This document shows, in pieces, positions 36,557 to 64,000 of a stretch of DNA of 64,000 nt (its first letter is position 1; every line of letters starts with the position of its first letter). The stretch spans positions 10,167,501 to 10,231,500 of the forward strand of contig NC_053048.1 of assembly GCF_003473485.1 (NCBI RefSeq), in the 5' to 3' direction. Origin of the DNA: Medicago truncatula (taxonomy: Eukaryota > Streptophyta > Magnoliopsida > Fabales > Fabaceae). The translations under genes were made by a program, and so were the position numbers. The notes under the pieces were generated by a model. That model worked only from the letters and a program-made list of their open reading frames with translations, ran no database searches and was not told where the DNA came from.

Positions 36557-36565
36557 TTTAGTTAA

Positions 36566-37426: not shown

Positions 37427-37435
37427 TTTAGTTAA

Positions 37436-44470: not shown

Positions 44471-44499
44471 AAGGTATTTGTCAAAAAAATATATTGTAA

Positions 44500-44930: not shown

Positions 44931-45178
44931 TATTTATTTTAAAGGTAAAATTTTATTCATTAAACTATTTACCAACAAAAAATCCAACTATCCTAAGCCG
45001 CAAACAAAATATATATTATGAAAGAGAAAAAATGAAAAACAAACATAAAAGAACATAAACGAAAATCTATAGAAAAATCATCAAACAAATCTAAAGAAAG
45101 GAAGACTATGAAACATTTAAGAGGATGTTTGTGTACGCACTTATGTTTGGTATTCATGGAAACTATGTTATAATTTAA

Positions 45179-45454
45179 TCACTTGCATTCACACCAGCCA
45201 TTTATACACGTTGGATATAAACCAGGCGAGCACTTATATTTTTGACAATGAACATCATCAATGCATATATTCTTTGCTGTGATGAAAATGTGAATAAAAG
45301 TATGTTACTAAAATGAGATAAAATATTATGTGCGAAGTAAAGAAGATAATTTGAAAAATGATATAAAAAATGGTTTACCGTCAGTGTTCTTTCCACTGAA
45401 AAATACAAAGAGTACGATAATTATAACATAAATAAATTTGATAATATCAGCCAT
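45179..45454 (-). CDS. NCR: nodule-specific cysteine-rich (NCR) peptide, copy A
   Basis: Two exons on the minus strand, 45,454-45,379 and 45,276-45,179, separated by a 102-bp GT-AG intron (phase 1) at the place usual for NCR genes. The 57-residue product has a hydrophobic signal peptide starting MADIIKFIYVIIIVLFVFFS, the hallmark K-F-x-Y start, then a mature part with six cysteines spaced C-x5-C-x4-C-x7-C-x4-C-x1-C, the classic six-Cys NCR pattern. NCR peptides are secreted into symbiosomes of nodule cells, where they drive terminal differentiation of rhizobia. The mature exon is base-for-base the same as in copies B and C; the signal exon differs at a few residues (V8I, I17V, I24T). The TATA-like TTTATAAA lies at 45,512-45,519, but the AAAGAT motif of the other copies is altered. 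Confidence 0.88.
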
Positions 45455-45511
45455 ATTTCCCCTATAAACGTATCAAATAAAAAATGACTTTTTCTTTTAT
45501 ACTACAAAAAA

Positions 45512-45519
45512 TTTATAAA
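45512..45519 (-). promoter_or_regulatory. TATA box of NCR copy A
   Basis: TTTATAAA, 58 bases upstream of the start codon. The same element occurs 50 bases upstream of the start in copies B and C. Confidence 0.6.
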
Positions 45520-45850
45520 CATAGTGTTTTTCTTACAAAAAATTAATATTTTTTAGCGCTTATGGAGTTCTGAACAGCCCTTCTTAAACTTAGAATCATT
45601 AAATTTATTTTTTGGACTAAATTAGTGTATTTTGTTTGTCCTTTCATCACTTAGAAAGGATTGCTAATGCTGTATATTTTGATTGCTAATGGTGTATGTT
45701 TTGATTGATGAAAAGGCATGTATTAAAGGACAAGTTACTCCACAAGTCAATGCAATGGGTAATTTTCCTATATTTTAAAGAAGCGTTTTATTTTTAAATT
45801 TTGTTGACGAGAAATTATTTAAATTTAAGTGATGTATACTATTTGAATAT

Positions 45851-46258
45851 GGCAAATTTTATGGTACATCTAATAAATTTGGGTGTATCGGTACTCCAAG
45901 TCGTAAAATTAATAATAAATGAGTTGTTTTTTTGAAGAAAAATAATTATTTTCTATCATTGACAACTAAGATAATTAAATTTTATATACCAAAAGCTTCG
46001 ACGAAATAAAACTTAATTTTTAAGAATTTTTATTACTCATAACAATGAATATTGATTATTTTTTATGACAAAATGTAAATTTTGTAATATGATCCTTATA
46101 AACAATGAAATGATGATTTTTCTTATGAAATGATGTTTTCTAAAATATAAATATTGACAAATACCTTTTTATTTCATTAAAGTGATCTTTAATTTATATA
46201 TTTTGTGAAACAAGAGTACCGGTACACTCAAAATTGTGAGTGTACCATAGAAGTTCCC
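45851..46258. mobile_element. Mutator-type MITE, 408 bp, perfect 9-bp target duplication
   Basis: The left end GGCAAATTTTATGGTACATC and the right end in reverse, GGGAACTTCTATGGTACACT, are inverted repeats that continue to a GGTGTATCGGTACTC / GTGTACCGGTACTC block. The flanks are a perfect 9-bp direct repeat TTTGAATAT (45,842-45,850 and 46,259-46,267). There is no coding sequence. It lies upstream of NCR copy A. Confidence 0.85.
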
Positions 46259-46343
46259 TTTGAATATATGTTATATACTCTACTTTCATGGTCTACCTTT
46301 TGCTTCTTGAGGAATGATTTCATCCGATTGTTCATTTTTTTAA

Positions 46344-46534
46344 GGGTTAATAGGTCTTTACCCCCTGTAATATAGGTTATTTTCAGTTTTTCCCCTGTAA
46401 AATATTTTTTTTGATTTACACCATGTAAAAAAAATTGTTTTGATTTACCCCCTATAGGCCAAATAATTTTATTTTATTTTTAAAGAAATTTTCGTTTTTG
46501 TTTGGCCTATTAGGGGGTAAAGACCTATTAACCC
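46344..46534. mobile_element. short Mutator-type MITE, 191 bp
   Basis: The ends are inverted repeats GGGTTAATAGGTCTTTACCC (left) and its complement (right). The flanking 9-mers TTTTTTTAA and TTTTTTGAA match at 8/9. The interior carries repeated TTTCCCCTGTAAA/TTTACCCCCT blocks. Its GGGTTAAT start resembles the element at 36,566. Confidence 0.75.
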
Positions 46535-46543
46535 TTTTTTGAA

Positions 46544-47242
46544 TTTACACTTATTTTTACATGCTTATCAGTTGTACATGTGGAACCCCTTGAACTATTC
46601 TACCTATTTAATGACCCTAGTTTTCTAGAGAAAAAACTCCAACTTCTCTCCAAACTTTCTTTCTCCTTCGTTTATCGAGGAGGGTTAATTTTAGGTCTTT
46701 TTTTTTTTTACCTACAATCAGATAAACGTCAAAAATAAGTCTCTCAAAAAAAAAGGAAGAAAAAAAAAGGAAAAAGACAGCAAAAATTGGTCCCGGCACA
46801 AAAATTTACGATTCCTTTATACCCATTTGGAATTGATTAAGGCAAAAGTGCTTGGTAAGAGTTGAAATGCTAAATAAATAAAAAAAGTAGTAGAAACCTA
46901 ACTCCAATCTAACTATAATTTTTCAAATATAACCACCTTTTACCTAAGGTAAGTTATAACCGTTGGTCTATATGGCAAGCTAGAATACACGCTAGAGGGA
47001 GGGGGTAAATAGCGTTTTAAAATTTTTAAGAGTTTAGCAAAAGTGTGTTTGAAAACGAATTTGACTAATTGGATTCGTGCTTGGTAACGATAACAAAAAT
47101 TAAAGTAATGAATAATACAATAAGATTTACTATTGAATTGAGAGATTCAATTGCCAAATCTTAATACAATCAATTATAAATAATTCTTAACACAATATAC
47201 AAAACTAGACGATTCTAAACCAAACCTAAACGCAATAAAACT
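46544..47242. other. intergenic, nothing recognised
   Basis: AT-rich with a few homopolymer runs (for example near 46,700 and 46,747). No gene. Confidence 0.4.
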
Positions 47243-48640
47243 TGATGGTCGGATTTAGGCAAGTATACCAAATCATTTACCACGTAATAAAGTAATAAGT
47301 AGAGTATCGTATCCACATGGATTGTAGTTTCAACCAAACAATATGTGTTACTTATTTGGGAACAATTAAAATAAATAAAAGATAACGATTTAGAGATTTG
47401 ATATCAAAATGTTAGCGGCGGTTAGGATTCTTCGAATTCCCTCTATTTAATTGTTGGAATTACGCAACAATCAAGTCTTAATCATGATATTTATCGTTAT
47501 TTATCTAAGTGATGAGTTATTGGGGTTTTACTACCTATTAGCTGTCGAGTTGTACATGCTAATCACACGGGTAGGTATGTGTGGGGCCTTATTCTCTCAA
47601 AGATATAGGTTCATTCCTCTCAAGCCGTCGAGTTGCAACAGTTGATCCCTCTGGTTGGTACGTGTGGGTCTTACTATCTCAGAGTTGAAACATAGACTTT
47701 AATTAAAGTTCCTAAATTCCCAATGTTGTGGACCCAATGCTCAAAAAGGTTCCCTCATCTATGAATTTTAGAAGTAAATAGCACACTCTCCCTCTCGGTA
47801 TTTCTACAAATGGGCAGCCCTATCAGCATCTACCTTACTAAGCTTCGAGGACAACGAAGTTATCGAGTTGATTTAAGTTGTGAAGTCACATGTTTCCCTA
47901 GTTACTTCCTGATTGGAGTTGTTTTGCACCGATGTTTGGTAATGTCACCTCCCGAAGTACTTTTATCACAGGGTTATGCTATATAGCTTTTTTCCCTAGT
48001 TACTTATTAGTTAGTTCCTGTTTAAGACAGATATATATACATCAATATTAGGTATGTCACCTCCCTAAGTGCCTATGTATCAGGGTTATGATTCTGACAA
48101 GACAAATCTTACGCACGACAGTAAAATTAATTAGTGTAAAGAAAATACCTGAACAAAGACTTTAAATTAAATAAATTATCCAGCAACCATAATAGAGGCT
48201 CATCTTAGAACCCTAGTCTAAAAATATTTAGTCACACATGGTAACTAAAGACAAATTACAAAAAAAATAAAACATACCCTAGAGAAGCATGGAGTGAGGA
48301 GAGAAACTCCTCCCTTTAAGCAAACTTCTTGGTTTTGAATGAGAAATTATGATTGAGAGGTATGGTATTTATAAGGAAAGTTTCCACCTGAAGTTTGGCC
48401 CAAAAACCAACATTTTTCCACAAGTAACAAAATTTAGTTTTTGCCCGCAAGACATAGGCGCTAGGTACTAGGAGCATGTGAGAGGAGTTTCAGGTGCCAG
48501 GCACCTAGACCCATGCACCAGGCGCATGAGCATGCGTTAGGCACCCAGAAATGTGTGTCAGACGCATGTGAGTGCACTCTGGATGCTGAAACGCATGTTT
48601 TTTCGTCTTTTGGGTGTTTGCTTTCATAAGATGTCTTTGA
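47243..48640 (-). mobile_element. LTR family A copy (minus)
   Basis: Starts TGATGGTCGGATTTAGGCAA and follows the 26,736 copy: the GTAATAAAGTA-TAAGTAGAGTAT block, the TCTTCGAATTCCCTCTATT block, a minus-strand TATA-like CTTATAAATACC near 48,375, and CATGCG-CCTAGGCGC motifs at 48,440-48,600. The segment 47,870-48,080 contains an internal duplication. A non-coding LTR fossil. Confidence 0.65.
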
Positions 48641-49390
48641 ACCTAGGAACAAAATTTCTCCCTATGTAATGTCTTTTGAGGCCTCTTGAATCTTCATTCT
48701 TTGATCTTCCCAAAATCTTCACAAATCTTCAAATGTCTTGCTTTGCCGGTTTGCATGATTTCTTCGTTAAAACACCTAGAAATACCCAAAAATTGCTATA
48801 TTTCGGGAAGAATATGATTAGAGACTCAAATATAGAAAACATTACAAATCTCCCGAAGTCATAAACAATTGCTCTAATACCCCTCTATTTTGGATGTTAA
48901 ACTTACTGAAAATGACTCAAAAACATGTCAAGAATAACGTAAGATGACATGCAATTACCCATAAAAGGGTATTTGAAGAAGTAAAGAAACTAGAAAAAGA
49001 AATTCTCTAGTATACCATACTGAGACAGTACCAAGTTTTTCTATAGCTATGGTATGATGGAGAAAAAATAGAGAATCGAAATTCGTTGAGACACTAATCA
49101 ATGTATAATAGAGATCAAAATAAAACTAATTCGGATCATAAAATGGCTACAACATCTATATTCAGATACGAGGTAGGGTTAGAAAGAAAATATGATATGC
49201 CAAAATTATAGGACATGCGATTTCTCTCAACTCAAAGAAACAAGAATCCTATGAATATAATATCATTTACGGACTTATTTCATTTCATTGCCATTATATT
49301 TAAGTACAAATACATAACAACATGGTTCATGAAATTAGAGAAAGAAAAAGATAATTATAGGTTGCCAACACTATAACTAGATAACACCTA
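48641..49390. other. intergenic before the duplication
   Basis: The first part may be outer LTR sequence. No gene is supported. The duplicated block starts at 49,391. Confidence 0.4.
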
Positions 49391-49461
49391 ATGAAACATT
49401 TAAGAGGATGTTTGTGTACGCACTTATGTTTGGTATTCATGGAAACTATGTTATAATTTAA

Positions 49462-49739
49462 TCACTTGCATTCACACCAGCCATTTATACACGTTGGATA
49501 TAAACCAGGCGAGCACTTATATTTTTGACAATGAACATCATCAATGCATATATTCTTTGCTGTGATGAAAATGTGAATAAAAGTATGTTACTAAAATGAG
49601 ATAAAATATTATGTGCGAAGTAAAGAAGATAATTTGAAAATGATAAAAAAAAAATGGTTTTACCGTCAATGTTCTTTCCACTGAAAAATATAAAGAGTAC
49701 GATAATTATAACATAAACAAACTTGATAATATCAGCCAT
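49462..49739 (-). CDS. NCR: nodule-specific cysteine-rich (NCR) peptide, copy B
   Basis: Exons 49,739-49,664 and 49,559-49,462 (minus), with a 104-bp GT-AG phase-1 intron. The 57-residue product begins MADIIKFVYVIIIVLFIFFS (signal peptide, cleaved near the exon junction) and has a mature region of about 31 residues with cysteines spaced C-x5-C-x4-C-x7-C-x4-C-x1-C, ending C-E-C-K. Mature charge is near neutral to slightly positive (four Lys against two Asp and one Glu, one His). The product is identical in sequence to copy C. Family knowledge gives nodule-specific secretion to bacteroids and disulphide-bonded action. A TATA-like box and an AAAGAT nodulin-type motif lie within 50 bases upstream. 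A MITE begins 131 bases upstream of the start codon. The frame that ignores the intron is an artefact. Confidence 0.9.
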
Positions 49740-49777
49740 ATTTTCTCCTATAAACGTATCAAATAAAAAATGACTTT

Positions 49778-49796
49778 ATCTTTTTTAGTTTATAAA
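49778..49796 (-). promoter_or_regulatory. TATA box and AAAGAT motif of NCR copy B
   Basis: On the minus strand TTTATAAA (49,789-49,796) lies 50 bases before the start codon and AAAGAT (49,778-49,783) follows it. AAAGAT is one half of the classic nodulin consensus; its position here, downstream of the TATA box, is not typical, so function is uncertain. The same arrangement is present in copy C. Confidence 0.5.
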
Positions 49797-49869
49797 CATC
49801 GTGTTTTTCTTATAAAAATTAAATATTTTTTAGCACTTATGGAGTTCTGAAAAGCCCTTCCTAAATTTA

Positions 49870-50207
49870 GGGTGTGTTTGGTTTGCAAAACAGCAAATAC
49901 TGTACAGAACAGTACAAGAAAGAACAACACAATACAAGGGAGAACACCACATGACAAATTTTTATGGAATTGAATAATTTTTAGTTTTATACGATTTTTG
50001 GGGGACGAAATGTTATTTTGGTATTTTAGACAACCTGTACGTGGGAAAAAAAGTTGTGATGTGGTTTGGTGAGCGACAAAATATCAATTTTTGTCCTGTC
50101 CCTTGCCTCTAGTTTATCCTGTACCTGAAATAGTTTTACAAATCAAACACCGGATAACTGGAGTTGTTCTGTCCTGTCCTTCATTTTTTAGCAAATCAAA
50201 TGCACCC
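49870..50207. mobile_element. Tourist-like MITE (PIF/Harbinger), 338 bp
   Basis: Starts GGGTGTGTTTGGTTTGC and ends GCAAATCAAATGCACCC, inverted termini typical of Tourist elements, with TTA on each side (49,867-49,869 and 50,208-50,210). The NCR copy A locus has the empty site (near 45,600) with a single target TTA, which confirms the insertion and its limits. Confidence 0.9.
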
Positions 50208-50210
50208 TTA

Positions 50211-51942
50211 GAATCATTAAAAAAAATCTTTTAACTAAATTAGTGTATCTTGTTTGTCCCTTCATCACTTAGAAAGGAGGTCATATAAAAGGTTAGCAAT
50301 CGTAAAAAATTATTCTTTATTGACTAAATATCCGCTATTTTATAACCTTTCATGGTTGCTAATGGTGAATATTGTGCAAGAGTAAACCAAGTGTAATTTC
50401 TTGATGAAAATCAAATGTGGCTAAATTATGAGGAAAATCACCTTCTGTGTAAGACACACAACTTACATTTAAGAACACAATTAAAAAGCATTTCCGCGCA
50501 TGTTTTTTAATCCCTATGGAATAGAATGAACATTCTTAAAAGCTACCACCACAATTTTTATCAAAACAAATTTCAATAGTGGTAATAGTAGTTTTTTTTT
50601 TGAGGGAATAGTGGTAATAGTAGTTGTTAACTCAGCTTCAAAAGAAGTCATATAATGTATAATTTTAATGTAGTCAGATTTCATAATGTATATTTTTCCC
50701 CCTAAAATGTTGTAAACATGCAAAGTATGTGAAAGCGTGTCAAAAGTGTACGGGGTTCTACATCGCAATGACTTCAATATCTTGTTAAGCTTTCCCTCTC
50801 ACGCGCTCTCCAAACTTTAATTTTACACCGTTCAGGTTTTAAATCCGAAGTGAGCTTTATCATTTTCAGATTATATAATCGGAAAAAGTCCAGATTGCAA
50901 AAAACAAGAGATTTAACATACATTCAAAATCTACAAGGTCTGGCCGATCAAGTGTTGTTACCATTGATGTTCGTCGGTGCCTATAAATGCCCAAAGCGTT
51001 CATGTTCCTTTTCATTCTAAATGGACTTTTTTGGGATGTTTGTGTTGTTTGAATCTCCTTGGGCGCTTATGATGCCATTGTTTCTCTGTTTGCCTTTCAT
51101 ATGGCCGGTAGAGTTGCATTGCAGAATTTTGGAGGCAACGCGATGGTAAACTAGGACCTTCATATTTGTAATTGTGGGAGTAGTATGCTTTAGCTAAATG
51201 AAGATCTGAGCATTGTAATAGGGTTGTCATCAATTGAAGCCATCCACATCTATGTAGTGATCCTTTGACAATTTTTGTGGGTGTTGGATTCGTCCTTTCG
51301 TCCATGGTTCCACGAGTGTGGGTTTGGATTTTTTTTCTGTTCAAATCCGGAGTTGTTTTCATTCGTCTATTTTTAGTTGCCAAGCATGTTTATAGTACTC
51401 CTCCATGGTAAAGATATGACGATTTCTTTGATGTGTGTTTATATCTTTATGAGATGATGTTTATGTAAATGGGATATGTTTGCCTTAATCTGCTTGTCAA
51501 GATCAAAAGTGTAAAAAACGGGAGCGAAAGTGATACATCTTTGTTTAAATTGTGTTGTCATTTCAAAATGATTTCTCAATTTATGTCAATTTGCATTATA
51601 CTTTTCACATTGTGTAATGTCAATTGACACACGGTCTTGTGGTCGATATGGAAGACTAGGAACGATCAAATTTTCTCTTCAAAAACGTATTCGGTACTTG
51701 AGTTAGTGGAGCCAATTAAAAGTTTGTCTTGACAATGGCATTCAGCTAGAAATACGAGGTCTCTATGTATATTTTACGAGTGAATCTCTTTATCCCTAAT
51801 GTATTTTTAGATAATCTTACGAGCTACGAGCCTATGTGGTGTTTTGATATTGTTTTGATGGATAGAGTACGGCTTGTACTTTGTCCTTCACCTATTAATT
51901 TGGGGCTAATAAAATTTATACTTTGTTTCACCTATTAAAACT
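50211..51942. other. duplicated intergenic stretch, higher divergence
   Basis: No supported gene. Short frames on either strand are not kept between copies B and C. A small poly-T insertion with a tandem GTGGTAATAGTAG repeat near 50,575-50,625 is absent from copy C. Confidence 0.5.
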
Positions 51943-52260
51943 ATGCTTGTACTTCACCATTATAAGATGCAAATTATGGATGATTCCTTACTAAATCAAA
52001 CCAAACAAACCTTAATAGGGTTACGAATCAGATTTTTTTGCCAAATCTTACCCAAAATCTACCTACCCATGATCTTCTTTCCGATCACAATTCACAACAC
52101 ACATATCCAAAAGCTATTTGTAATTTTGCAAACGTTAGCAGCTTATCCTTTAGTCTTGATCTTTGAACAAAAGAACCCACTTTGTGACTCTATCCATGCA
52201 CTGACGTATCCCATTCCAACACCCATACCCTTACCCATTCTCTCCCACTTTAACTATTGA
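51943..52260 (+). other. open frame of doubtful coding status
   Basis: A 105-residue frame starting MLVLHHYKMQIMDDS is kept open in copy C (106 residues), although the copies differ by compensating indels near residue 43. No domain is recognised. The minus strand of the same place has a 31-residue frame starting MGKGMGVGMGYVSAW, also preserved. Neither is convincing as a gene. Confidence 0.2.
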
Positions 52261-52559
52261 CCATTTTATCAAAACAATACTCCCCTTTTTCTTTTTCTTA
52301 TTATAAGTAAAAAAATATCTTTTCATAATTATTAAATAATTAATGTATTTGGTCTGAATTATAGACCAAGCATATCATTTTCGTAATATTTTGTTTATAA
52401 TAATGAACAGATGAATATAAAGATAAACCTAGTGATTTATCTCAAATGATTAATGAGCTATATCAAATAAAAATTTGTTTAGAAAATACCATGTTCGATT
52501 TTGGAAGAAACAATTATTGGTTAGACTTTACATACATTTTGGATGAATTCTAGATTACT

Positions 52560-52684
52560 TTTTTTTTTTTTTTGGTCAAGTAATCTAGTGGCTAGAGAGA
52601 AGTGGAGTATCCGGGGTTCGAACCCCGACCGCTGCATATAATATTCAATATCCCTACCAACTGAGCTAAGCTCACGGGGATATA
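52560..52684 (-). mobile_element. SINE family 1 copy with 14-bp target duplication
   Basis: 125 bp with box A (CCAACTGAGCTA on the plus strand), box B (GGTTCGAACC) and a T-run tail on the plus strand. Flanked by the perfect repeat AATTCTAGATTACT (52,546-52,559 and 52,685-52,698). Present at the same place in copy C, so it predates the duplication. Confidence 0.9.
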
Positions 52685-52698
52685 AATTCTAGATTACT

Positions 52699-53340
52699 AA
52701 TACTCATTCCCGTGGAGTAAAGGGGTTAAAAAAAACTATATAATACTAATAGAGAAAAATGTTATTTAATCAATTATTAGATGATTTTTTTTTTTTTTAT
52801 AAAAATTCTATTCATCCTTAATTATAAACGGCTATTGCATATTTAACATGTATTGAAAAAATTAGTATTATAATTAATATATACAATTTATATAAAACCA
52901 TTTGTGTATAGATAGATAGATAGATGTATCCATGATACACTTTCATATTTAAAAAAAAATATTAATATTATTAAGATTGAGTTAAAAAAATTAAATAAAT
53001 CTAATTATTTCATGGAGGTTTATATTCAAAGATAATTATTCCTCATTGAATGCTTAAAATTAACGACCAAATGGAGTAGTAAGTATAGCTGCATCCGATT
53101 ATTATTATAAACAAAAATTTATATTTTAGATTCATTTAATTAATTATGTATATAATCTCTTGTTCAAAAAAAATAAATTATGTATACAATCTTTATAATA
53201 AACTATATTCATAATTTAATAAATGAATATAAAATATTGATTTTTTTTACTTATAACAGTGACCGAATAATGTATATCTCTTGGTTGACATTCAAGTCTT
53301 AGTTAAATAAGTTCCGAATAGTTAATATAGGCTTCCCAAG
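52699..53340. other. upstream region of the membrane-protein gene
   Basis: Very AT-rich, with a short (GATA)n run near 52,909-52,924. It presumably holds the promoter of the gene at 53,404; no TATA box is assigned. Confidence 0.4.
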
Positions 53341-53403
53341 ATTATGACCATTTTCATTCCTTTCAAATTTCATTTCTCAAGTTTCATTTCAAAGGATCGA
53401 ATC

Positions 53404-53829
53404 ATGATACACCAAAACGAAGATGACCAACAATCTAAGGTTCTATACGAGCTTTGTTCCATGATAATCCACACTCTCAAGTTCCCTTTACCCTCCCCAC
53501 GCTACAGTACTCAACATCCATATTCTTCAACTTCTATAGCTTCTTCTTCTTCTTCTTCGTCATCTAAGAGACAGCCATGGTGGACGACAACGTTATCAAC
53601 ATCCCCGAAGGACTCACCGGCAGCATTTGCATCTCTTTTTTTCGGCATATGCGTAGCTTTAATGCTTTTTGGATCGGTCACTTTCTTAATTGGGTTGCTT
53701 TTGTTGCCTTGGATTACTCTTTTAGTGCTGGTTTTCTATGTTGCTGCTTTTGTCTCTAACTTGTCCTTGTTAGGTCGTTTCATTGTTGGTTCCTTTGGGG
53801 TTGCACTTGCGCAAGCATGTTCAAGGTAA
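53404..53829 (+). CDS. small membrane protein with two hydrophobic helices, copy B
   Basis: Uncharacterised plant membrane protein. I take the ATG at 53,404 (MIHQNEDDQQSKVLYELCSM, 141 residues) because the acidic, soluble start resembles known plant relatives; an in-frame ATG at 53,344 would add 20 residues. After a Ser-rich linker (about 41-54) and a K-R-Q-P-W-W segment come S-P-A-A-F-A-S and two hydrophobic helices (about 74-100 and 103-120), then G-R-F-I-V-G-S-F-G-V-A-L-A-Q-A-C-S-R. A GTAAG donor overlaps the last codons and an acceptor TTCCTACAG lies near 54,470; splicing there would give the same C-terminus because the next exon starts with an immediate stop. The duplicate at 61,578 encodes an identical protein. 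A DUF3339 gene converges on it from the right. Confidence 0.8.
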   Translation: MIHQNEDDQQSKVLYELCSMIIHTLKFPLPSPRYSTQHPYSSTSIASSSSSSSSKRQPWWTTTLSTSPKDSPAAFASLFFGICVALMLFGSVTFLIGLLLLPWITLLVLVFYVAAFVSNLSLLGRFIVGSFGVALAQACSR

Positions 53830-54538
53830 GCCTCTCCTTTCTTGTTTCATAGTTCCTAAATGATTAATGATTCTTAGTTTTCCATATTTGCAACTTTCAT
53901 TTTGTTTTTTCTCTTTTAATTTTGTTTGTTGAATGAATATGTATTTTCGTATGTGAATTTGTAATTATCGGTTAAATTTGTTTACGATTTTTACAACTTA
54001 AACAATCTCTTTCTTGAACATTGTAACATGTCAATTAAAATGGTTCATTCATATGTGACACGTTAAATGTAGATATAGCGGCAAATGTGTGCTCTTCGTC
54101 ACTACCACAATCGAAGGAGGAATTGTTTGTTATAATTTTGAGGGGTAAAAGCCTAGGAATTACTTTCTCTTTAAATTTGGAAAAGAAAAAGTAAATTCTA
54201 GGCTATTACCAAAAAAGAAATATTTGACATTCGATGTCATCCCTTGAGACGTGATATGATAGTCGCATCTTCATTTAACATGCCACATGATGTTGGAGGA
54301 GGAAGTATTTTGATTGAAGTGTTAACTTTCAAGGAAGGGCATATTCACTCCTAGTTTTTTTTTTTTAAGGAAATTCACTCGTAGTTTTTGAGTTCTTCTT
54401 GTTGAAACAATTTTCTTTCTTATTTTATAGTATGGCTTGTATGTCTGCTACTCACTTTAAATTCCTACAGATGAGATAAGGCCAATATACTGCTAGAAAG
54501 CTAGGAGGGAAGGAATTGTCAGAGAAACTAAGGTTACT
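53830..54538 (+). other. 3' region or intron of the membrane-protein gene
   Basis: Non-coding. The possible donor at 53,826 and the acceptor near 54,470 suggest that at least part is an intron within the 3' UTR. Confidence 0.45.
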
Positions 54539-54549
54539 TAGCTACTGAG

Positions 54550-54671
54550 GTATTGACATGAGTTAGTCTGGTGGTATTGACTTGAAACAAGAGTGTCTTT
54601 CTCTCCAATGTCTTAAGTTCGATTCTCCTCGATGTTAGTTTGAGTGGATTAATTTAGCTTCTTAAAAAAAA
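54550..54671 (+). mobile_element. tRNA-derived SINE, family 2
   Basis: 122 bp with box-A-like TTAGTCTGGTGGTATTGAC, box-B-like AGTTCGATTCTCC, a GAGTGGATTAATTTAGCTTC part and an A-run. Flanked by TAGCTACTGAG (54,539-54,549) and TAGGTACTGAG (54,672-54,682). In copy C the two flanks are identical, so the mismatch arose in copy B after duplication. Confidence 0.85.
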
Positions 54672-54865
54672 TAGGTACTGAGATGCATGTTTCATAGTAT
54701 TAAAGAACATAATCTTGTTATTGAGAATTAATAATGATGTTTACATTTGCAAGAGCTAGTATGATTATTTATATATCTTCTTCCATTGAAATTTTGTCTC
54801 TAATCCTAGTAATGGTATCATTGAACACGTCAATTGTAACTTTTTTTTTTATGAATCCGGTATTT

Positions 54866-54990
54866 TTTTTGGTAGATAGACGAAATGTCAAAGTCATTAT
54901 AAAACTCACACATATAAGTGGAAGTATCAGGGTTCGAACTCCGATCATGGCATCCAACCTAACAATTTCGGCATTTTACCAGTTATCTTT
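54866..54990 (-). mobile_element. SINE-like element, family 3
   Basis: On the minus strand a box-B-like GGAGTTCGAACCC is present and the 3' side ends in an A-run (the T-run near 54,864 on the plus strand). A partial copy lies at 44,500. A convincing box A is not seen. It creates small accidental frames on both strands. Confidence 0.55.
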
Positions 54991-55585
54991 TCCGTGCAAC
55001 AGTAGAGACTATTTATTTTCTTAAGATAAATATACTAATTGGCTGTAATGTATTAATGAGGAAATATTAATTTGTTAATGAGTACTAATGTTCATCATAG
55101 AAGATTGTATCAACAATACCGACATCTATTAAACATTAGATTAATTGCTTTCATTATGAAATACATAAGAATTACTATTTTAAGTTTGTGCAGAGGGGAT
55201 TTAGACACAATAAATCAAAAGACATGCATTATTTAATTAAAATAATAACAAGAAAACTCATCAATGTCTTCACACTAAAATTGTTGAATACAAAATAACA
55301 AGCTCACCATACTGATCACAAAAATGCTCACTTCTATAACATTAAAAGTGTGTATAACTGAAAGATGTATAAATTTGAATATAACTAAATTTCCTAAGAC
55401 AGGTAGTGTATGTAGGTGGATGCATGGTTTTGAATAGCATTTGTAGTTACGCTGCGAACTTTTATATTGCAGAAAAACGTGATTGATATAGTCGAAATTG
55501 AGGTTATTATATTGTTCCAGAGACCTCAAAATCTTTTATATATCGTCTTAGAGACCTCAAATCAAAACCATAGGTGGATGATCAC
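54991..55585 (-). other. intergenic and probable 3' UTR of the DUF3339 gene
   Basis: No separate gene is supported. The open frame at 55,275-55,529 lies downstream of the DUF3339 stop and has no recognisable domain. Confidence 0.4.
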
Positions 55586-55795
55586 TTAACCACTATTGAT
55601 ATGAACATTAATGGCAACAAGAAAGATAACCATAAAGCCAAAGAAGAGAAGGGAATGAACAAAAATGGAAATGGCACTTGTTTGGAAATTTACAAATTCC
55701 ACCACCCTGCCTTTGCCAGGTAGCTGAAATAGTAATCCAGGTGAAAATAACACAAACAAGATCAAGCCTATAACAATTGGAGCCCAATCTGCCAT
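55586..55795 (-). CDS. DUF3339 small membrane protein, copy B
   Basis: A 69-residue protein of the plant DUF3339 family (Pfam PF11820), starting MADWAPIVIGLILFVLFSPG. Two membrane helices are evident, about residues 6-24 and 44-65, with the family-typical S-P-G-L-L-F-Q-L-P-G turn, a V-E-F segment, and the end V-N-V-H-I replaced by I-N-V-H-I-N-S-G. The full length matches the family's usual 65-72 residues, and the frame needs no intron. Molecular function is unknown; family members are predicted to be small integral membrane proteins. It is convergent with the membrane-protein gene at 53,404. The duplicate at 63,769 differs by one synonymous change. Confidence 0.93.
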   Translation of the reverse strand: MADWAPIVIGLILFVLFSPGLLFQLPGKGRVVEFVNFQTSAISIFVHSLLFFGFMVIFLVAINVHINSG

Positions 55796-55917
55796 TTATT
55801 TCTCCCTTTGAAGCTTTCTATGATAACTAGTGAGAGATAAAAATTATAAAGAAAAATGTAACACATTGTTTGGAGATGTAGATCAATTTATAAACGAATT
55901 ATTGAGTAGTATTCAAT

Positions 55918-56062
55918 AAAGCATAGATACAGACACGGATATCAGACACGACGCGGATATTGACACGTCAACATTACTAATAATTTGAAAAAATCACATA
56001 TTTCAGTAAACTTATGTGTCAGTGTCGTGTCGGTGTCGGACACGACACGTGTCTGACACAAG
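55918..56062. repeat. GTGTCGG/CCGACAC dispersed repeat
   Basis: The segment has ACAGACACGGATATCAGACAC on one side and GTGTCAGTGTCGTGTCGG, then GACACGACACGTGTCTG on the other, forming imperfect inverted repeats about 145 bp long. Related copies occur near 20,015-20,130 and 21,300-21,425. Likely a MITE-like or satellite-derived repeat. Confidence 0.6.
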
Positions 56063-57075
56063 ACATGTATAATTTGAGGAGTGTTTGTATTTCATCGATA
56101 ATATTTGCTTGAAATCATAGTGCTTATCATATGTATTTGGATTAGAAGTTGTAACTACACTTATTGGTCCTGGCCGTCCGATCTAGAGTCGATGGTGAAT
56201 ATGATTTAACGATGATTTGGTGTCAGTGAAAAGTAAACCGACCAATCTCAAATTAATGGTCGAGATTATTTAATGTGTGTAAGTACCTGCTTTTTTAACT
56301 ACAGTGGATCTGGATCCATTTCAAATGAATGGCATAAAGGACAACATAAAATTCAAGGAGAACGGAATTTAGTTCAAAATGGAAGATAAGACAAATAGAA
56401 GGGTTTGGTTCACATCAAATTCGGCAGAGGCATTGGATAAAACGATAACTTGAAAGTTACAGCCCTTTGTCATGGCATGACACTATTGAGATCTCTCATA
56501 TAAAATTATACATGGACGGCTATCAACTAGGGGAGTCATGTAATTTATTAAACTTTTTTATTTTGAAAAAAATCCATGGCATGTAATTTATTAAACTTTT
56601 TATTTTGAAAAAAATCTATATTAAATACTTCATCCAATATACATGTTATATGATTCGATGATTGTACCTTTTTTTTTCCGCCTCTCTCTTCTCCTTCTCT
56701 CTTTTCGAGCCGTCATGAGAATCCTAGTTTTTTCTCCTTCATCTATCAAAGAGAGGTGATTTAGGGTCAATTTTTGACCCAAAATCACCCCTCTAACTAG
56801 TATTTCTATTTCCCTTTTATTAAAATAAGTGATTTTTACATCTATTTCGTTTTTTCTTTTGTGATTTCGCCGTCTTAGTGCGACGTTGTTTTGTTCGTCG
56901 TCTTTGTGCGACGTTTGTCTTTCTTGTTTCGTTCAGGTATTTGTTGATTCAGATTGTCAGATCAGCTTTGATCCAGTGCAGATCAAATCAATGACTTTGG
57001 AGTCGTCAACGTTGCAGATCCGGAGACATGTTAGATCAGCTTCGATCTAGTGCAGATCAAATCAATGACGTCATA
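56063..57075. other. intergenic between duplicates, with small local repeats
   Basis: A tandem repeat of about 55 bp with CATGTAATTTATTAAACTTT lies at about 56,533-56,625. The motif TCAGCTT-GATC-AGTGCAGATC, followed by AAATCAATGAC, is repeated at about 56,963 and 57,035. The interval 56,860-57,075 is GC-richer, with GTGCGACG repeats, and may be an older element. No gene is supported. Confidence 0.45.
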
Positions 57076-57106
57076 CTAGGTATATAACCCGTGCAAAGCA
57101 CGGGTT
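57076..57106 (-). mobile_element. Helitron-type 3' terminus (candidate)
   Basis: On the minus strand a perfect hairpin CCCGTGC-TTT-GCACGGG (57,104-57,088) is followed after 8 bases by CTAG and then T, at 57,076-57,075. A GC hairpin just before a CTRR-T end is the signature of a Helitron 3' end. The element body would extend to higher coordinates; its TC 5' end was not located. Confidence 0.5.
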
Positions 57107-57511
57107 TGATCAAAACACTTGCAGCTTGTCCAAGAACCATAGCCAATCAATATTTTTAATTTGTTCTACCAATTTTCCCACATTATCCACCCCACCTTGA
57201 AATATAATATTGTTTCTAATATTTTAACTACACCATATTGTTAGTGATCAAACCAATTGCTTAAACTTATTTACGTGACTTTGCTGTAACAAAGCTCTAA
57301 AATGTTCTCTCTAATTGTTATGTATAGAACCTGAAAACAAATATAAAAGAAAAACATCAATCTTGTTAAAAAAAATAATGTGCTCTCTCTTAAAAAAAAA
57401 AAAGCGTCAATCTTTTTAAGAAAATAACGTGCTTTTTCAATATATAATGTTACAAAAATTGAAGAGTATAATCCAAGAGTTGATTGAAGAAAGTGATAAT
57501 GATGATCCAAA
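57107..57511. other. unique stretch next to copy C; possible captured exon
   Basis: The plus strand at 57,429-57,595 has a charged frame (for example S-D-N-D-D-P-K-P-N-I-K-E-H-K-R-K) running into the NCR 3' flank. If the Helitron reading is right, this lies inside it and may be a captured fragment. No family is recognised. Confidence 0.3.
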
Positions 57512-57652
57512 ACCAAACATAAAAGAACATAAACGAAAATCTATAGAAAAATCATCAAACAAATCTAAAGAAAGGAAGACTATGAAACATTTAAGAGGAT
57601 GTTTGTGTACGCACTTATGTTTGGTATTCATAGAAACTATGTTATAATTTAA

Positions 57653-57930
57653 TCACTTGCATTCACACCAGCCATTTATACACGTTGGATATAAACCAGG
57701 CGAGCACTTATATTTTTGACAATGAACATCATCAATGCATATATTCTTTGCTGTGATGAAAATGTGAATAAAAGTATGTTACTAAAATGAGATAAAATAT
57801 TATGTGCGAAGTAAAGAAGATAATTTGAAAATGATAAAAAAAAAATGGTTTTACCGTCAATGTTCTTTCCACTGAAAAATATAAAGAGTACGATAATTAT
57901 AACATAAACAAACTTGATAATATCAGCCAT
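57653..57930 (-). CDS. NCR: nodule-specific cysteine-rich (NCR) peptide, copy C
   Basis: Exons 57,930-57,855 and 57,750-57,653 (minus), intron 104 bp, GT-AG, phase 1. The predicted 57-residue peptide is the same as copy B: signal peptide MADIIKFVYVIIIVLFIFFS, then a six-cysteine mature part spaced C-x5-C-x4-C-x7-C-x4-C-x1-C. The TATA-like box is at 57,980-57,987, 50 bases upstream of the start codon, with AAAGAT next to it, and the Tourist-like MITE starts at 58,061. Unlike copy B, its 3' flank keeps the longer segment shared with copy A. Being identical in product to B, it may add dosage of one peptide. Confidence 0.9.
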
Positions 57931-58060
57931 ATTTTTTCCTATAAACGTATCAAATAAAAAATGACTTTATCTTTTTTAGTTTATAAACATCGTGTTTTTC
58001 TTATAAAAATTAAATATTTTTTAGCACTTATGGAGTTCTGAAAAGCCCTTCCTAAATTTA

Positions 58061-58398
58061 GGGTGTGTTTGGTTTGCAAAACAGCAAATACTGTACAGAA
58101 CAGTACAAGAAAGAACAACACAATACAAGGGAGAACACCACATGACAAATTTTTATGGAATTGAATAATTTTTAGTTTTATACGATTTTTGGGGGACGAA
58201 ATGTTATTTTGGTATTTTAGACAACCTGTACGTGGGAAAAAAAGTTGTGATGTGGTTTGGTGAGCGACAAAATATCAATTTTTGTCCTGTCCCTTGCCTC
58301 TAGTTTATCCTGTACCTGAAATAGTTTTACAAATCAAACACCGGACAACTGGAGTTGTTCTGTCCTGTCCTTCATTTTTTAGCAAATCAAATGCACCC
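58061..58398. mobile_element. Tourist-like MITE, copy in duplicate C
   Basis: 338 bp, nearly identical to 49,870-50,207 and at the same position relative to the NCR gene, flanked by TTA. It was carried along by the duplication, not inserted anew. Confidence 0.9.
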
Positions 58399-58401
58399 TT
58401 A

Positions 58402-60110
58402 GAATCATTAAAAAAATCTTTTAACTAAATTAGTGTATCTTGTTTGTCCCTTCATCACTTAGAAAGGAGGTCATATAAAAGGTTAGCAATCGTAAAAAAT
58501 TATTCTTTATTGACTAAATATCCGCTATTTTATAACCTTTCATGGTTGCTAATGGTGAATATTGTGCAAGAGTAAACCAAGTGTAATTTCTTGATGAAAA
58601 TCAAATGTGGCTAAATTATGAGGAAAATCACCTTCTGTGTAAGACACACAACTTACATTTAAGAACACAATTAAAAAGCATTTCCGCGCATGTTTTTTAA
58701 TCCCTATGGAATAGAATGAATATTCTTAAAAGCTACCACCACAATGTTTATCAAAACAAATTTCAATAGTGGTAATAGTAGTTGTTAACTCAGTTTAGTT
58801 GTTAACTCAGCTTCAAAAGAAGTCACATAATGTATGTAGTCAGATTTGATAATGTATATTTTTTCCCCAAAAATGTCGTAAACATGCAAAGTATGTGAAA
58901 GCGTGTCAAAAGTGTACGGGATTCTATATCGCAACGACTTCAATATCTTGTTAAACTTTCCCTCTCATGCGCTCTCCAAACTTTAATTTTACACCGTTCG
59001 GGTTTTAAATCCGAAGCGAGCTTTATCATTTTCAGATTATATAATTGAAAAAGTCCAAGTTGCAGAAAAACAAGAGATTTAACATGCATTCAAAATCTAC
59101 AAGGTCCGGCCGATCAAGTGTTGTTACCATTGATGTTCGTCGGTGCCTATAAATGCCCAAAGTGTTCATTTTCTTTTCATTATAAATGGATTTTTTTCGG
59201 ATGTTTGTGTTGTTTGAATCTCCTTGGGCACTTATGATGCAATTGTTTCTTTGTTTTCCATTCATATGGCTGCTAGAGTTGCTTTGCGGAATTTTGGGGG
59301 CAACGCAATGGTAAACTAGGACCTTCGTATTTGTAGTTGTGGGAGTAGTACGCTTTGGCGAAATGGGGATGTGAGCATTGTAATAGGGTTGTCATCAATT
59401 GAAGCTATCCACCTCTATGTAGTGATCATTGACAATTTTTGTGGGTGTTGGATTCGTTCTTTCGTCCATGGTTCCGCGAGTGTGGGTTTGGATTTTTTCC
59501 TGTTCAAATCCGGAGTTGTTTTCATTCGTCTATTTTTAGTTGCCAAGCATGTTTATAGTAGTTCTCCATGGTAAAGATATGCCATTATTTCCTTGATGTG
59601 TGTCTGTATCTTTATGAGATGATGATGTTTATGTAAATGGTATATGTTTGCCTTAATTTGCTTGTCAAGATCAAAAGTGTCAAAAACGGGAGCGAAAGTG
59701 ATATATCTTTGGTTAAATTGTGTTGTCATTTCAAAATGATTTCTCAATTTATGTCAATTTGCATTATATTTCTCACATTGTGTAATGTCAATTAACACAC
59801 GGTCTTGTGGTCGATATGGAAGACTAGGAACAATCAAATTTTCTCTTCAAAAACGTATTCGATACTTGAGTTAGTGGCGCCAATTAAAAGTTTGTCTTGA
59901 CAATGGCATTCAGCTAGAAAGTCGAGGTCTCAATGTATATTTTACGAGTGAATCTCTTTATCCCTAATGTATTTTTAGATAATCTTTCGAGCTACGAGCC
60001 TTTGTGGTGTTTTGATATTGTTTTGATGGATAAAGTACTGCTTGTACTTTGTCCTTCACCTATTAATTTGGGGCTAATAAAATTTATACTTTGTTTCACC
60101 TATTAAAACT
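58402..60110. other. duplicated intergenic stretch
   Basis: Counterpart of 50,211-51,942 with many small differences. No gene is supported. Confidence 0.5.
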
Positions 60111-60431
60111 ATGCTTGTACTTCACCATTATAAGATGCAAATTATGGATGATTCCTTACTAAATCAAACCAAACAAACCTTAATAGGGTTACGAATCAGA
60201 TTTTTTTGCCAAATCTTACCCAAAATCTACCTACCCATGATTGCCCTTCTTTCCGATCACAATTCACAAACACATATCCAAAAGCTATTTGTAATTTTGC
60301 AAACGTTAGCAGCTTATCCTTTAGTCTTGATCTTTGAACAAAAGAACCCACTTTGTGACTCTATCCATGCACTGACGTATCCCATTCCAACACCCATACC
60401 CTTACCCATTCTCTCCCACTTTAACTATTGA
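60111..60431 (+). other. open frame of doubtful coding status, copy C
   Basis: Counterpart of 51,943-52,260. It is 106 residues, with a short altered stretch from compensating indels. No recognised domain. Confidence 0.2.
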
Positions 60432-60730
60432 CCATTTTATCAAAACAATACTCCCCTTTTTCTTTTTCTTATTATAAGTAAAAAAATATCTTTTCATAAT
60501 TATTAAATAATTAATATATTTGGTCTGAATTATAGACCAAGCATATCATTTTCGTAATATTTTGTTTATAATAATGAACAGATGAATATAAAGATAAACC
60601 TAGTGATTTATCTCAAATGATTAATGAGCTATATCAAATAAAAATTTGTTTAGAAAATACCATGTTCGATTTTGGAAGAAACAATTATTGGTTAGACTTT
60701 ACATACATTTTGGATGAATTCTAGATTACT

Positions 60731-60855
60731 TTTTTTTTTTTTTTGGTCAAGTAATCTAGTGGCTAGAGAGAAGTGGAGTATCCGGGGTTCGAACTCCGAC
60801 CGCTGCATATAATATTCAATATCCCTACCAACTGAGCTAAGCTTACGGGGATATA
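60731..60855 (-). mobile_element. SINE family 1, copy in duplicate C
   Basis: Counterpart of 52,560-52,684, with the same 14-bp target duplication (60,717-60,730 and 60,856-60,869) and a few substitutions, one of them in box B. Confidence 0.88.
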
Positions 60856-60869
60856 AATTCTAGATTACT

Positions 60870-61517
60870 AATACTCATTCCCGTGGAGTAAAGGGGTTAA
60901 AAAAAACTATATAATACTAATAGAGAAAAATGTTATTTAATCAATTATTAGATGAATTTTTTTTTTTTTTTATAAAAATTCTATTCATCCTTAATTATAA
61001 ACGGCTATTGCATATTTAACATGTATTGAAAAAATTAGTATTATAATTAATATATACAATTTATATAAAACCATTTGTGTATAGATAGATAGATAGATGT
61101 ATCCATGATACACTTTCATATTTAAAAAAAAAATATTAATATTATTAAGATTGAGTTAAAAAAATTAAATAAATCTAATAATTTCATGGAGGTTTATATT
61201 CAAAGATAATTATTCCTCATTGAATGCTTAAAATTAACGACCAAATGGAGTAGTAAGTATAGCTGCATCCGATTATTATTATAAACAAAAATTTATATTT
61301 TAGATTCATTTAATTAATTATGTATATAATCTCTTGTTCAAAAAAAATAAATTATGTATACAATCTTTATAATAAACTATATTCATAATTTAATAAATGA
61401 ATATAAAATATTGATTTTTTTTACTTATAACAGTGACCGAATAATGTATATCTCTTGGTTGACATTCAAGTGTTAGTTAAATAAGTTCCGAATAGTTAAT
61501 ATAGGCTTCCCAAGATT
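60870..61517. other. upstream region of membrane-protein gene copy C
   Basis: Counterpart of 52,699-53,340, nearly identical, including the (GATA)n run near 61,081. Confidence 0.45.
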
Positions 61518-61577
61518 ATGACCATTTTCATTCCTTTCAAATTTCATTTCTCAAGTTTCATTTCAAAGGATCGAATC

Positions 61578-62003
61578 ATGATACACCAAAACGAAGATGA
61601 CCAACAATCTAAGGTTCTATACGAGCTTTGTTCCATGATAATCCACACTCTCAAGTTCCCTTTACCCTCCCCACGCTACAGTACTCAACATCCATATTCT
61701 TCAACTTCTATAGCTTCTTCTTCTTCTTCTTCGTCTTCTAAGAGACAGCCATGGTGGACGACAACGTTATCAACATCCCCGAAGGACTCACCGGCAGCAT
61801 TTGCATCTCTTTTTTTCGGCATATGCGTAGCTTTAATGCTTTTTGGATCGGTCACTTTCTTAATTGGGTTGCTTTTGTTGCCTTGGATTACTCTTTTAGT
61901 GCTGGTTTTCTATGTTGCTGCTTTTGTCTCTAACTTGTCCTTGTTAGGTCGTTTCATTGTTGGTTCCTTTGGGGTTGCACTTGCGCAAGCATGTTCAAGG
62001 TAA
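61578..62003 (+). CDS. small membrane protein with two hydrophobic helices, copy C
   Basis: Duplicate of the gene at 53,404. The 141-residue product is identical; the only coding difference seen is a synonymous Ser codon (TCA to TCT) in the Ser-rich linker. Start choice, helices, splice donor at the stop and convergent DUF3339 neighbour are the same. The upstream 640 bases are also nearly identical, so both copies probably keep the same promoter. Confidence 0.8.
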   Translation: MIHQNEDDQQSKVLYELCSMIIHTLKFPLPSPRYSTQHPYSSTSIASSSSSSSSKRQPWWTTTLSTSPKDSPAAFASLFFGICVALMLFGSVTFLIGLLLLPWITLLVLVFYVAAFVSNLSLLGRFIVGSFGVALAQACSR

Positions 62004-62721
62004 GCCTCTCCTTTCTTGTTTCATAGTTCCTAAATGATTAATGATTCTTAGTTTTCCATATTTGCAACTTTCATTTTGTTTTTTCTCTTTTAATTTTGTT
62101 TGTTGAATGAATATGTATTTTCGTATGTGAATTTGTAATTATCGGTTAAATTTGTTTATGATTTTTACAACTTAAACAATCTCTTTCTTGAACATTGTAA
62201 CATGTCAATTAAAATGGTTCATTCATATGTGACACGTTAAATGTAGATATAGCGGCAAATGTGTGCTCTTCGTCACTACCACAATCGAAGGAGGAATTGT
62301 TTGTTATAATTTTGAGGGGTAAAAGCCTAGGAATTACTTTCTCTTTAAATTTGGAAAAGAAAAAGTAAATTCTAGGCTATTACCAAAAAAGAAATATTTG
62401 ACATTCGATGTCATCCCTTGAGACGTGATATGATAGTCGCATCTTCATTTAACATGCCACATGATGTTGGAGGAGGAAGTATTTTGATTGAAGTGTTAAC
62501 TTTCAAGGAAGGGCATATTCACTCCTAGTTTTTTTTTTATTTTTTTTTTAAGGAAATTCACTCGTAGTTTTTGAGTTCTTCTTGTTGAAACAATTTTCTT
62601 TCTTATTTTATAGTATGGCTTGTATGTCTGCTACTCACTTTAAATTCCTACAGATGAGATAAGGCCAATATACTGCTAGAAAGCTAGGAGGGAAGGAATT
62701 GTCAGAGAAACTAAGGTTACT
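62004..62721 (+). other. 3' region or intron of membrane-protein gene copy C
   Basis: Counterpart of 53,830-54,538. It differs mainly in a T-rich run near 62,530-62,550. Confidence 0.45.
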
Positions 62722-62732
62722 TAGGTACTGAG

Positions 62733-62854
62733 GTATTGACATGGGTTAGTCTGGTGGTATTGACTTGAAACAAGAGTGTCTTTCTCTCCAATGTCTTAAG
62801 TTCGATTCTCCTCGATGTTAGTTTGAGTGGATTAATTTAGCTTCTTAAAAAAAA
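62733..62854 (+). mobile_element. SINE family 2, copy in duplicate C
   Basis: 122 bp, with a perfect 11-bp target duplication TAGGTACTGAG (62,722-62,732 and 62,855-62,865). Confidence 0.88.
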
Positions 62855-63048
62855 TAGGTACTGAGATGCATGTTTCATAGTATTAAAGAACATAATCTTG
62901 TTATTGAGAATTAATAATGATGTTTACATTTGCAAGAGCTAGTATGATTATTTATATATCTTCTTCCATTGAAATTTTGTCTCTAATCCTAGTAATGGTA
63001 TCATTGAACACGTCAATTGTAACTTTTTTTTTTATGAATCCGGTATTT

Positions 63049-63173
63049 TTTTTGGTAGATAGACGAAATGTCAAAGTCATTATAAAACTCACACATATAA
63101 GTGGAAGTATCAGGGTTCGAACTCCGATCATGGCATCCAACCTAACAATTTCGGCATTTTACCAGTTATCTTT
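63049..63173 (-). mobile_element. SINE-like family 3, copy in duplicate C
   Basis: Counterpart of 54,866-54,990; box-B-like GGAGTTCGAACCC on the minus strand. Confidence 0.55.
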
Positions 63174-63978: not shown

Positions 63979-64000
63979 TTATTTCTCCCTTTGAAGCTTT

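What the first reader, a model, noticed from the sequence alone, without database searches (positions are those of the whole stretch)
45179..57930. Three clustered NCR peptide genes that simple frame-finding misses
Each gene has a 76-base signal-peptide exon and a 98-base cysteine exon split by a ~0.1-kb intron. Spliced, they give 57-residue peptides with the six-Cys pattern C-x5-C-x4-C-x7-C-x4-C-x1-C. The mature exon is the same in all three copies, while the signal exon and flanks differ in copy A. This suggests recent amplification or conservation of one particular peptide.
Basis: partly seen in the sequence, partly recalled or inferred. Interest (0 to 1): 0.75.

Follow-up and report, generated by a model that had tools for sequence, protein, structure and literature searches.

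The report
Three NCR nodule-peptide genes sharing one peptide
A legume DNA stretch carries three small two-exon genes of the known nodule-peptide (NCR) family with an identical predicted mature peptide, copied by DNA duplication and exchange, two of them with a mobile element lodged in a predicted promoter control site; the genes are ordinary family members, the promoter contrast is the interesting part.

Summary
Three minus-strand genes (A, B, C) have a 76-nt signal exon, a 102 or 104-nt GT-AG intron and a 98-nt exon, giving 57-aa peptides with C-x5-C-x4-C-x7-C-x4-C-x1-C. The spliced proteins match Pfam Nodulin_late over its full length (E 1.8e-15 and 5.2e-16). They are NCR genes by sequence; expression could not be tested.

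The inference needs changing. B and C lie in one duplicated block of at least 6.4 kb that carries two other genes. A is identical to B over a 252-nt run that includes intron and 3' flank (0 of 20,000 permutations), while upstream DNA and exon 1 differ. That points to gene conversion or crossover, not selection on the peptide.

New here: published NCR promoter motifs stand upstream. In B and C a 338-bp MITE-like insertion, absent from A, splits motif 4, which in NCR169 holds an AHL-binding site. A's own motif 4 is degenerate, so the effect is open.

Verdict: real, a new member of a known kind with a testable promoter contrast. An assembly artefact for B/C is not excluded.

The parts
45379..45454 (-). 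NCR gene A, exon 1 (signal peptide, 76 nt)
   Evidence: 25-aa piece matches Nodulin_late positions 1-25, E 2.3e-6, below the gathering score alone
45179..45276 (-). NCR gene A, exon 2 (six-Cys mature peptide, 98 nt with stop)
   Evidence: identical to B and C
49664..49739 (-). NCR gene B, exon 1
   Evidence: identical to C
49462..49559 (-). NCR gene B, exon 2
57855..57930 (-). NCR gene C, exon 1
57653..57750 (-). NCR gene C, exon 2
45108..45359 (-). 252-nt run of A identical to B (3' flank, exon 2, 83 nt of intron): conversion or crossover tract
   Evidence: 22 mismatches in 477 aligned sites, run length not reached in 20,000 permutations; A versus C run 201 nt (25 mismatches in 550), reached in 1 of 20,000
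45035..45107 (-). 73-nt 3' flank segment shared by A and C (57509-57581), not found at B
   Evidence: 98.6%; 2 places in the window at E 0.01 or better
49391..55817 (.). Left copy (B) of the segmental duplication; right copy (C) 57582-64000 reaches the window end; start-to-start spacing 8191
   Evidence: 97.7% over 6449 columns
57582..64000 (.). Right copy (C) of the segmental duplication, cut by the window end
50527..51874 (.). Diverged island inside the B/C block: 83 of 1320 sites differ, versus 14 of 5077 outside
   Evidence: boundary chosen from the data
49870..50207 (.). 338-bp MITE-like insertion upstream of B, inner edge 131 bp from the ATG; TAA on both sides, terminal inverted repeat 16 of 20
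   Evidence: A aligns on either side of it without it (45108-45593 and 45589-45660)
58061..58398 (.). The same insertion upstream of C, 1 mismatch to B
50208..50233 (-). Upstream 26 nt of NCR promoter motif 4 in B, cut off from its other part by the insertion
   Evidence: with the insertion and one TAA taken out in silico, motif 4 scores 32.1 (36/41) at -153..-113 in B and 23.0 ungapped / 27.9 gapped in C; the surviving part still scores 15.1 in B
49809..49849 (-). NCR promoter motif 5 of B (37/41)
   Evidence: above the maximum of the resamplings
50235..50275 (-). NCR promoter motif 1 of B (31/41), at -536..-496 with the insertion
   Evidence: above the maximum of the resamplings
50328..50368 (-). 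NCR promoter motif 2 of B (31/41), weaker support
   Evidence: score 16.5: within the whole-window resampling maximum of 21.1, above all 1,000 resamplings of its own 1 kb
58000..58040 (-). NCR promoter motif 5 of C, same sequence as B
58425..58465 (-). NCR promoter motif 1 of C, at -535..-495
45532..45572 (-). NCR promoter motif 5 of A (36/41)
45575..45615 (-). Degenerate motif 4 of A, no insertion (28/41, score 8.2; gapped 14.2)
45617..45657 (-). NCR promoter motif 1 of A (31/41), -203..-163
55586..55795 (-). DUF3339 small-protein gene carried by the B block (C copy starts at 63978, same protein)
   Evidence: (scanned with one mistyped residue)
53404..53829 (+). 141-aa predicted membrane-protein ORF carried by the B block (C copy 61578-62003, same protein)
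   Evidence: no Pfam family above its cut-off

Best explanation
These are three genuine two-exon NCR (late nodulin) genes of a legume. Shown from sequence: exon 1 encodes the signal peptide, exon 2 the six-cysteine peptide, and NCR-type promoter motifs stand upstream. Inferred from the family: in nodule cells the transcript is spliced, the precursor enters the secretory pathway, and the folded, disulfide-linked peptide goes to the symbiosomes and acts on the rhizobia. With a computed net charge near +0.8 it is more likely a regulator of bacteroids than a membrane-killing peptide (inferred). History (inferred): an older NCR pair (A and the B/C ancestor) diverged upstream; a Tourist-like MITE landed in motif 4 of the B/C ancestor; a block of at least 6.4 kb was duplicated to give B and C; and the 3' half of the gene was exchanged between A and B/C, so all three now encode the same mature peptide. 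Expected result (inferred): B and C are driven differently from A, probably more weakly, because the predicted AHL-binding motif is split and the upstream motifs are moved away by the 338-bp insertion.
For: Gene structure and translation; Cys pattern absent from 40 resamplings; Nodulin_late E 1.8e-15 / 5.2e-16, both exons contributing; chickpea NCR13 as the only PDB sequence match up to E 10, E 2.9e-4, same Cys spacing; motifs 1 and 5 in 3 of 3 promoters, above the maximum of the resamplings made (30 of the window; 1,000 each of the A and B upstream 1 kb; C was not resampled); motif 4 restored in silico at -153..-113, against the reported order 2-1-4-5-3 and AHL site -157 to -121 in NCR169 (PMC9946822 passages); A/B identical tract across noncoding DNA; block duplication; insertion with TAA on both sides and A aligning without it. 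Computed pI 7.8, net charge +0.8.
Against: No transcript, nodule or genome-wide data; species unnamed and no genome held. Motif 2 is missing in A. Motif 3 in B/C (12.9, 39/50) beats 95% but not 99.9% of its resamplings and ranks third in the window within chance; A has none there. Against the promoter contrast: A's motif 4 is degenerate without any insertion (28/41, gapped 14.2), no better than what is left of it in B with the insertion (15.1, also above 200 of 200 resamplings), and A's best ungapped motif-4 match in 1 kb lies elsewhere (-716..-676). The weights made from IUPAC letters and the Markov resamplings only approximate the published motif models. The order of events is the simplest I found, not proven: B lacks the 73-nt 3' segment that A and C share.
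Confidence: 0.8

Rival explanations
1. The mature exon is identical because purifying selection conserves this one peptide in all copies.
For: Exon 2 is 98/98 identical while exon 1 has 4 changes.
Against: The identical run also covers 83 intron bases and 71 bases of 3' flank with no difference A versus B; noncoding inside the tract 0/154 versus 22/225 for all A-B sites outside it, p 7e-6 (tract boundary taken from the data, so the permutation test is the fairer control).
Confidence: 0.08
2. The B/C duplication is an assembly artefact: two haplotypes of one locus placed in tandem.
For: Very low divergence (14 of 5077) with one diverged 1.3-kb island could be allelic variation; no reads are available.
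Against: B has no counterpart of the 73-nt 3' segment that C has; clusters and local duplication are described for NCR genes (PMC9515463 section 19; PMC7230169 passages). Neither excludes the artefact.
Confidence: 0.15
3. B and C are silenced relics: the insertion destroyed their promoter and A is the only working gene.
For: Motif 4 gapped score falls from 32.1 to 15.1 (B) and 27.9 to 10.9 (C), and motifs 1 and 2 lie near -500 and -600; removal of the H0 site left the NCR169 promoter poor in complementation (PMC9946822).
Against: All three reading frames and splice sites are intact; motif 5 stays in place; part of motif 4 survives in B; AT-rich DNA of the insertion might bind AHL proteins.
Confidence: 0.25
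4. They are defensin-like genes of other tissues, not nodule genes.
For: Tissue of expression untested.
Against: Nodulin_late match and motifs 1 and 5, of a set that Nallu et al. report as confined to NCR upstream regions (PMC3613412 passages).
Confidence: 0.05

Closest known systems
NCR / late nodulin family (Pfam PF07127); promoter compared with Medicago truncatula NCR169
   Same: Signal exon plus Cys exon, full-length profile match; with the insertion taken out, B's promoter motifs run in the order reported for NCR169, motif 3 being weak
   Different: Peptide strings not found in the open full texts searched (0 papers); motif 4 split by an insertion in B/C, degenerate in A, and motif 2 missing in A
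Chickpea NCR13 (PDB 7th8, 8ulm)
   Same: Same spacing of six cysteines; only PDB sequence match, E 2.9e-4
   Different: NCR13 is strongly cationic, +8 (PMC11637438 passages); this peptide computes to about +0.8, pI 7.8. The fold search of the model did not return NCR13
Tourist / PIF-Harbinger-type MITEs (name and features recalled)
   Same: 338 bp, TAA on both sides, terminal inverted repeats 16 of 20
   Different: No transposon library was searched

Membership tests
NCR (nodule-specific cysteine-rich) peptides | Short secreted precursor: signal peptide plus mature part | tested here: met
   57 aa; N-terminal 25 aa matches profile positions 1-25. No signal-peptide predictor was run
NCR (nodule-specific cysteine-rich) peptides | Four or six cysteines at conserved spacing | tested here: met
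   C-x5-C-x4-C-x7-C-x4-C-x1-C
NCR (nodule-specific cysteine-rich) peptides | Match to Nodulin_late profile above gathering score | tested here: met
   57.4 and 59.2 bits against 30.4; mature part alone 19.3 bits, below it
NCR (nodule-specific cysteine-rich) peptides | Intron between signal and mature exons | tested here: met
   GT-AG introns of 102-104 nt; splicing itself not shown
NCR (nodule-specific cysteine-rich) peptides | NCR-type promoter motifs | tested here: met
   Motifs 1 and 5 in 3 of 3 copies; motif 2 in 2 of 3; motif 3 weak in 2 of 3, absent in A; motif 4 split in B/C, degenerate in A
NCR (nodule-specific cysteine-rich) peptides | Nodule-specific expression | not testable with these tools
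   No RNA data
NCR (nodule-specific cysteine-rich) peptides | Host is an IRLC legume | not testable with these tools
   Window unnamed, no genome held
NCR13-like fold | Structure similar to 7th8/8ulm | tested here: inconclusive
   Single-sequence model pLDDT 91, pTM 0.50, short helix 7-10 and hairpin 21-24/27-30; Foldseek best E 2.5, NCR13 not listed
Tourist-like MITE | TWA target duplication, terminal inverted repeats, short, empty site in a relative (features recalled) | tested here: met
   no transposon library searched

The most novel reading that the evidence does not exclude
The cluster is a natural promoter experiment: gene exchange has placed one identical mature peptide behind two promoter forms, one with the compact motif array and one in which a mobile element splits the AHL-binding motif and moves the upstream motifs away by 338 bp, so the same peptide is made at different times or zones of the nodule. 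The exchange keeps the mature peptide uniform while the promoters diverge.
Probability: 0.25. Interest if true: 0.55.

Novelty: new member of a known kind. Interest (0 to 1): 0.35.

Why it matters
NCR peptides let some legumes force their bacteria into a terminal nitrogen-fixing state. The genes themselves add three members to a family of hundreds. The useful part is the contrast: an identical mature peptide behind a promoter without the insertion (A) and behind one split by a mobile element at the motif reported to bind AHL factors (B, C). It would let the need for motif 4 and for motif spacing be tested on natural promoters, and it suggests how local exchange, rather than selection, can keep a mature NCR peptide uniform.

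Tried and rejected
Rejected: identity of the mature exon as a sign of selection (noncoding DNA in the tract is identical too). Rejected: further NCR genes of this type in the window; a loose six-Cys search gave the same 3 places only, looser four-Cys searches two more places (48477 and 9707, both on the plus strand) that I did not take as NCR exons, and a signal-exon regex gave 10 places, the 3 genes and 7 others with no Cys exon beside them. My first test of B/C heterogeneity used a wrong boundary (49391-50620) and gave no difference, p 0.30; the likelihood scan then found the island 50527-51874, a boundary chosen from the data.

Led nowhere: the whole-genome search (none held); relatives in viral contigs (65 pattern matches, 0 confirmed; bacterial genome contigs were not scanned); Foldseek against PDB (11 matches, best E 2.5, mostly small venom peptides, taken as no match); text searches for the peptide (0 papers). 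Paper searches on NCR with gene conversion, transposons, MITEs or promoter insertions listed no paper that I recognised as reporting this promoter insertion: 20 of 303 listed, 9 of 9, 12 of 126, 12 of 334, 12 of 28; supplements could not be read.

Papers: PMC3613412, PMC11637438, PMC7230169, PMC3924332, PMC5369179: passages; PMC9946822: passages and section 10; PMC9515463: outline and sections 17 and 19; others only as search listings.
Full report
Observation. On the minus strand, A, B and C each have a 76-nt exon, a GT-AG intron of 102, 104 and 104 nt, and a 98-nt exon, giving 57 residues. The exact cysteine pattern occurs 3 times in the six frames of 64 kb, and 0 times in 40 Markov resamplings. 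ORF listing, tried around gene A, misses the cysteine exon.

Identity. The spliced proteins match Pfam Nodulin_late from end to end (positions 1-54 of 54, E 1.8e-15 for A and 5.2e-16 for B/C, scores 57.4 and 59.2 against a cut-off of 30.4 bits). Each exon alone falls below the cut-off (28.3 and 29.8 bits for the signal exons of A and B, 19.3 for the mature part), so the assignment rests on the spliced product. The only PDB sequence match is chickpea NCR13, E 2.9e-4, with the same cysteine spacing. NCR13 is described as net +8 and antifungal (PMC11637438, passages); the present peptide computes to about +0.8, pI 7.8, so strong membrane killing is not expected (inference). A single-sequence AlphaFold model of the 31 residues has pLDDT 91, a short helix and a hairpin, with pTM 0.50; Foldseek gave nothing below E 2.5, so I draw nothing from the fold.

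How the copies arose. Self-comparison shows that B and C lie in a direct duplication, 49391-55817 and 57582-64000, spacing 8191, 97.7% over 6449 columns, the right copy being cut by the window end. The block carries a DUF3339 gene and a 141-aa predicted membrane-protein ORF, both with the same protein in the two copies. Divergence is uneven: 14 of 5077 sites outside, 83 of 1320 inside an island at 50527-51874 (boundary chosen by likelihood from the data). A and B differ at 12 of 129 aligned upstream sites, 4 of 76 in exon 1 (3 amino-acid changes) and 6 of 102 in the intron, but at 0 of 98 in exon 2 and 0 of 71 in the 3' flank. The identical run is 252 nt, 45108-45359, not reached in 20,000 permutations; against C the run is 201 nt, reached once in 20,000. 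A and C share 73 further bases of 3' flank that were not found at B. Because intron and flank are in the tract, gene conversion or crossover explains it better than selection on the peptide.

Promoters. Nallu et al. reported five 41-50 bp motifs confined to the upstream regions of NCR genes (PMC3613412, passages). Scored with weights made from their IUPAC consensus, motif 5 stands between -118 and -70 in 3 of 3 copies (36-37 of 41) and motif 1 is present in 3 of 3 copies (31 of 41), above the maximum of the resamplings (30 of the window; 1,000 each of the A and B upstream 1 kb; C was not resampled). Motif 2 occurs in B and C, not A; it beats all 1,000 resamplings of its own 1 kb but not the whole-window maximum. 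Motif 3 in B and C beats 95% but not 99.9% of resamplings and is within chance for the window. In B and C a 338-bp insertion (49870-50207 and 58061-58398, 1 mismatch between them) has TAA on both sides and inverted ends matching 16 of 20; A aligns on both sides without it. Taking the insertion and one TAA out in silico gives motif 4 at -153..-113 with 36 of 41 (score 32.1) in B and 33 of 41 (23.0; 27.9 gapped) in C; with the insertion the scores are 15.1 in B and 6.0 (10.9 gapped) in C. The resulting order 2-1-4-5-3 is the one reported for the NCR169 promoter, whose AHL-binding H0 site at -157 to -121 resembles motif 4 and is needed for full complementation (PMC9946822, passages and section 10).

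Against the contrast. A has no insertion, but its motif 4 is degenerate (28 of 41; gapped 14.2, above 200 of 200 resamplings), no better than what survives in B with the insertion (15.1, also above 200 of 200). What differs is position: A keeps it at -161..-121, in B the remainder lies at -494..-454. Whether A is the better promoter is therefore an expectation, not a result.

How it works. Shown: gene structure, family, motifs, insertion, duplication, shared tract. Inferred from the family: nodule expression, splicing, secretion to symbiosomes, action on rhizobia. My expectation is that A keeps the compact promoter and that B and C are weaker or shifted. The alternatives are set out under rivals; an assembly artefact for B/C (0.15) and silenced B/C copies (0.25) are the serious ones.

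Novelty. New members of a known family. NCR clusters, local duplication and nearby transposons are described (PMC7230169, passages; PMC9515463 section 19), and missed two-exon NCR genes are a known annotation problem (PMC3924332, passages). The split motif 4 beside an unsplit paralogue with the same mature peptide is the part I did not meet in the searches made (capped listings, open papers only).

Noticed in passing
window 8831-11181 (+): Part of an SBP-domain (SPL-type) transcription factor gene: the ORF at 8831-9304 matches PF03110 over profile positions 1-48 of 75, E 3.1e-17; the ORF at 10471-11178 had no Pfam match and is put with it only by position.
   Followed up: partly
window 50527-51874: A 1.3-kb island of 6.3% divergence inside a B/C block that is otherwise 0.28% diverged; possibly conversion from a third copy outside the window.
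   Followed up: partly
window 44041-44480: Inverted-repeat element with 60-bp internal repeats, about 0.7 kb downstream of the NCR A stop codon.
   Followed up: no
window 36556-37436: 881-bp self-complementary element, 73%, MITE-like.
   Followed up: no
window 57041-57130 (-): Hairpin followed by TATATACCTAG on the minus strand, resembling a Helitron 3' end (recalled feature), between the B block and NCR C.
   Followed up: no
window 1-1156, 26736-27977, 47241-48421: Dispersed repeat in three long copies, matching in pieces at about 64-81%, with a shorter piece at 3127-3375.
   Followed up: no
window 40676-41008 (+): ORF with a zf-RVT domain (PF13966, E 5.2e-7), probably a retroelement fragment.
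   Followed up: no
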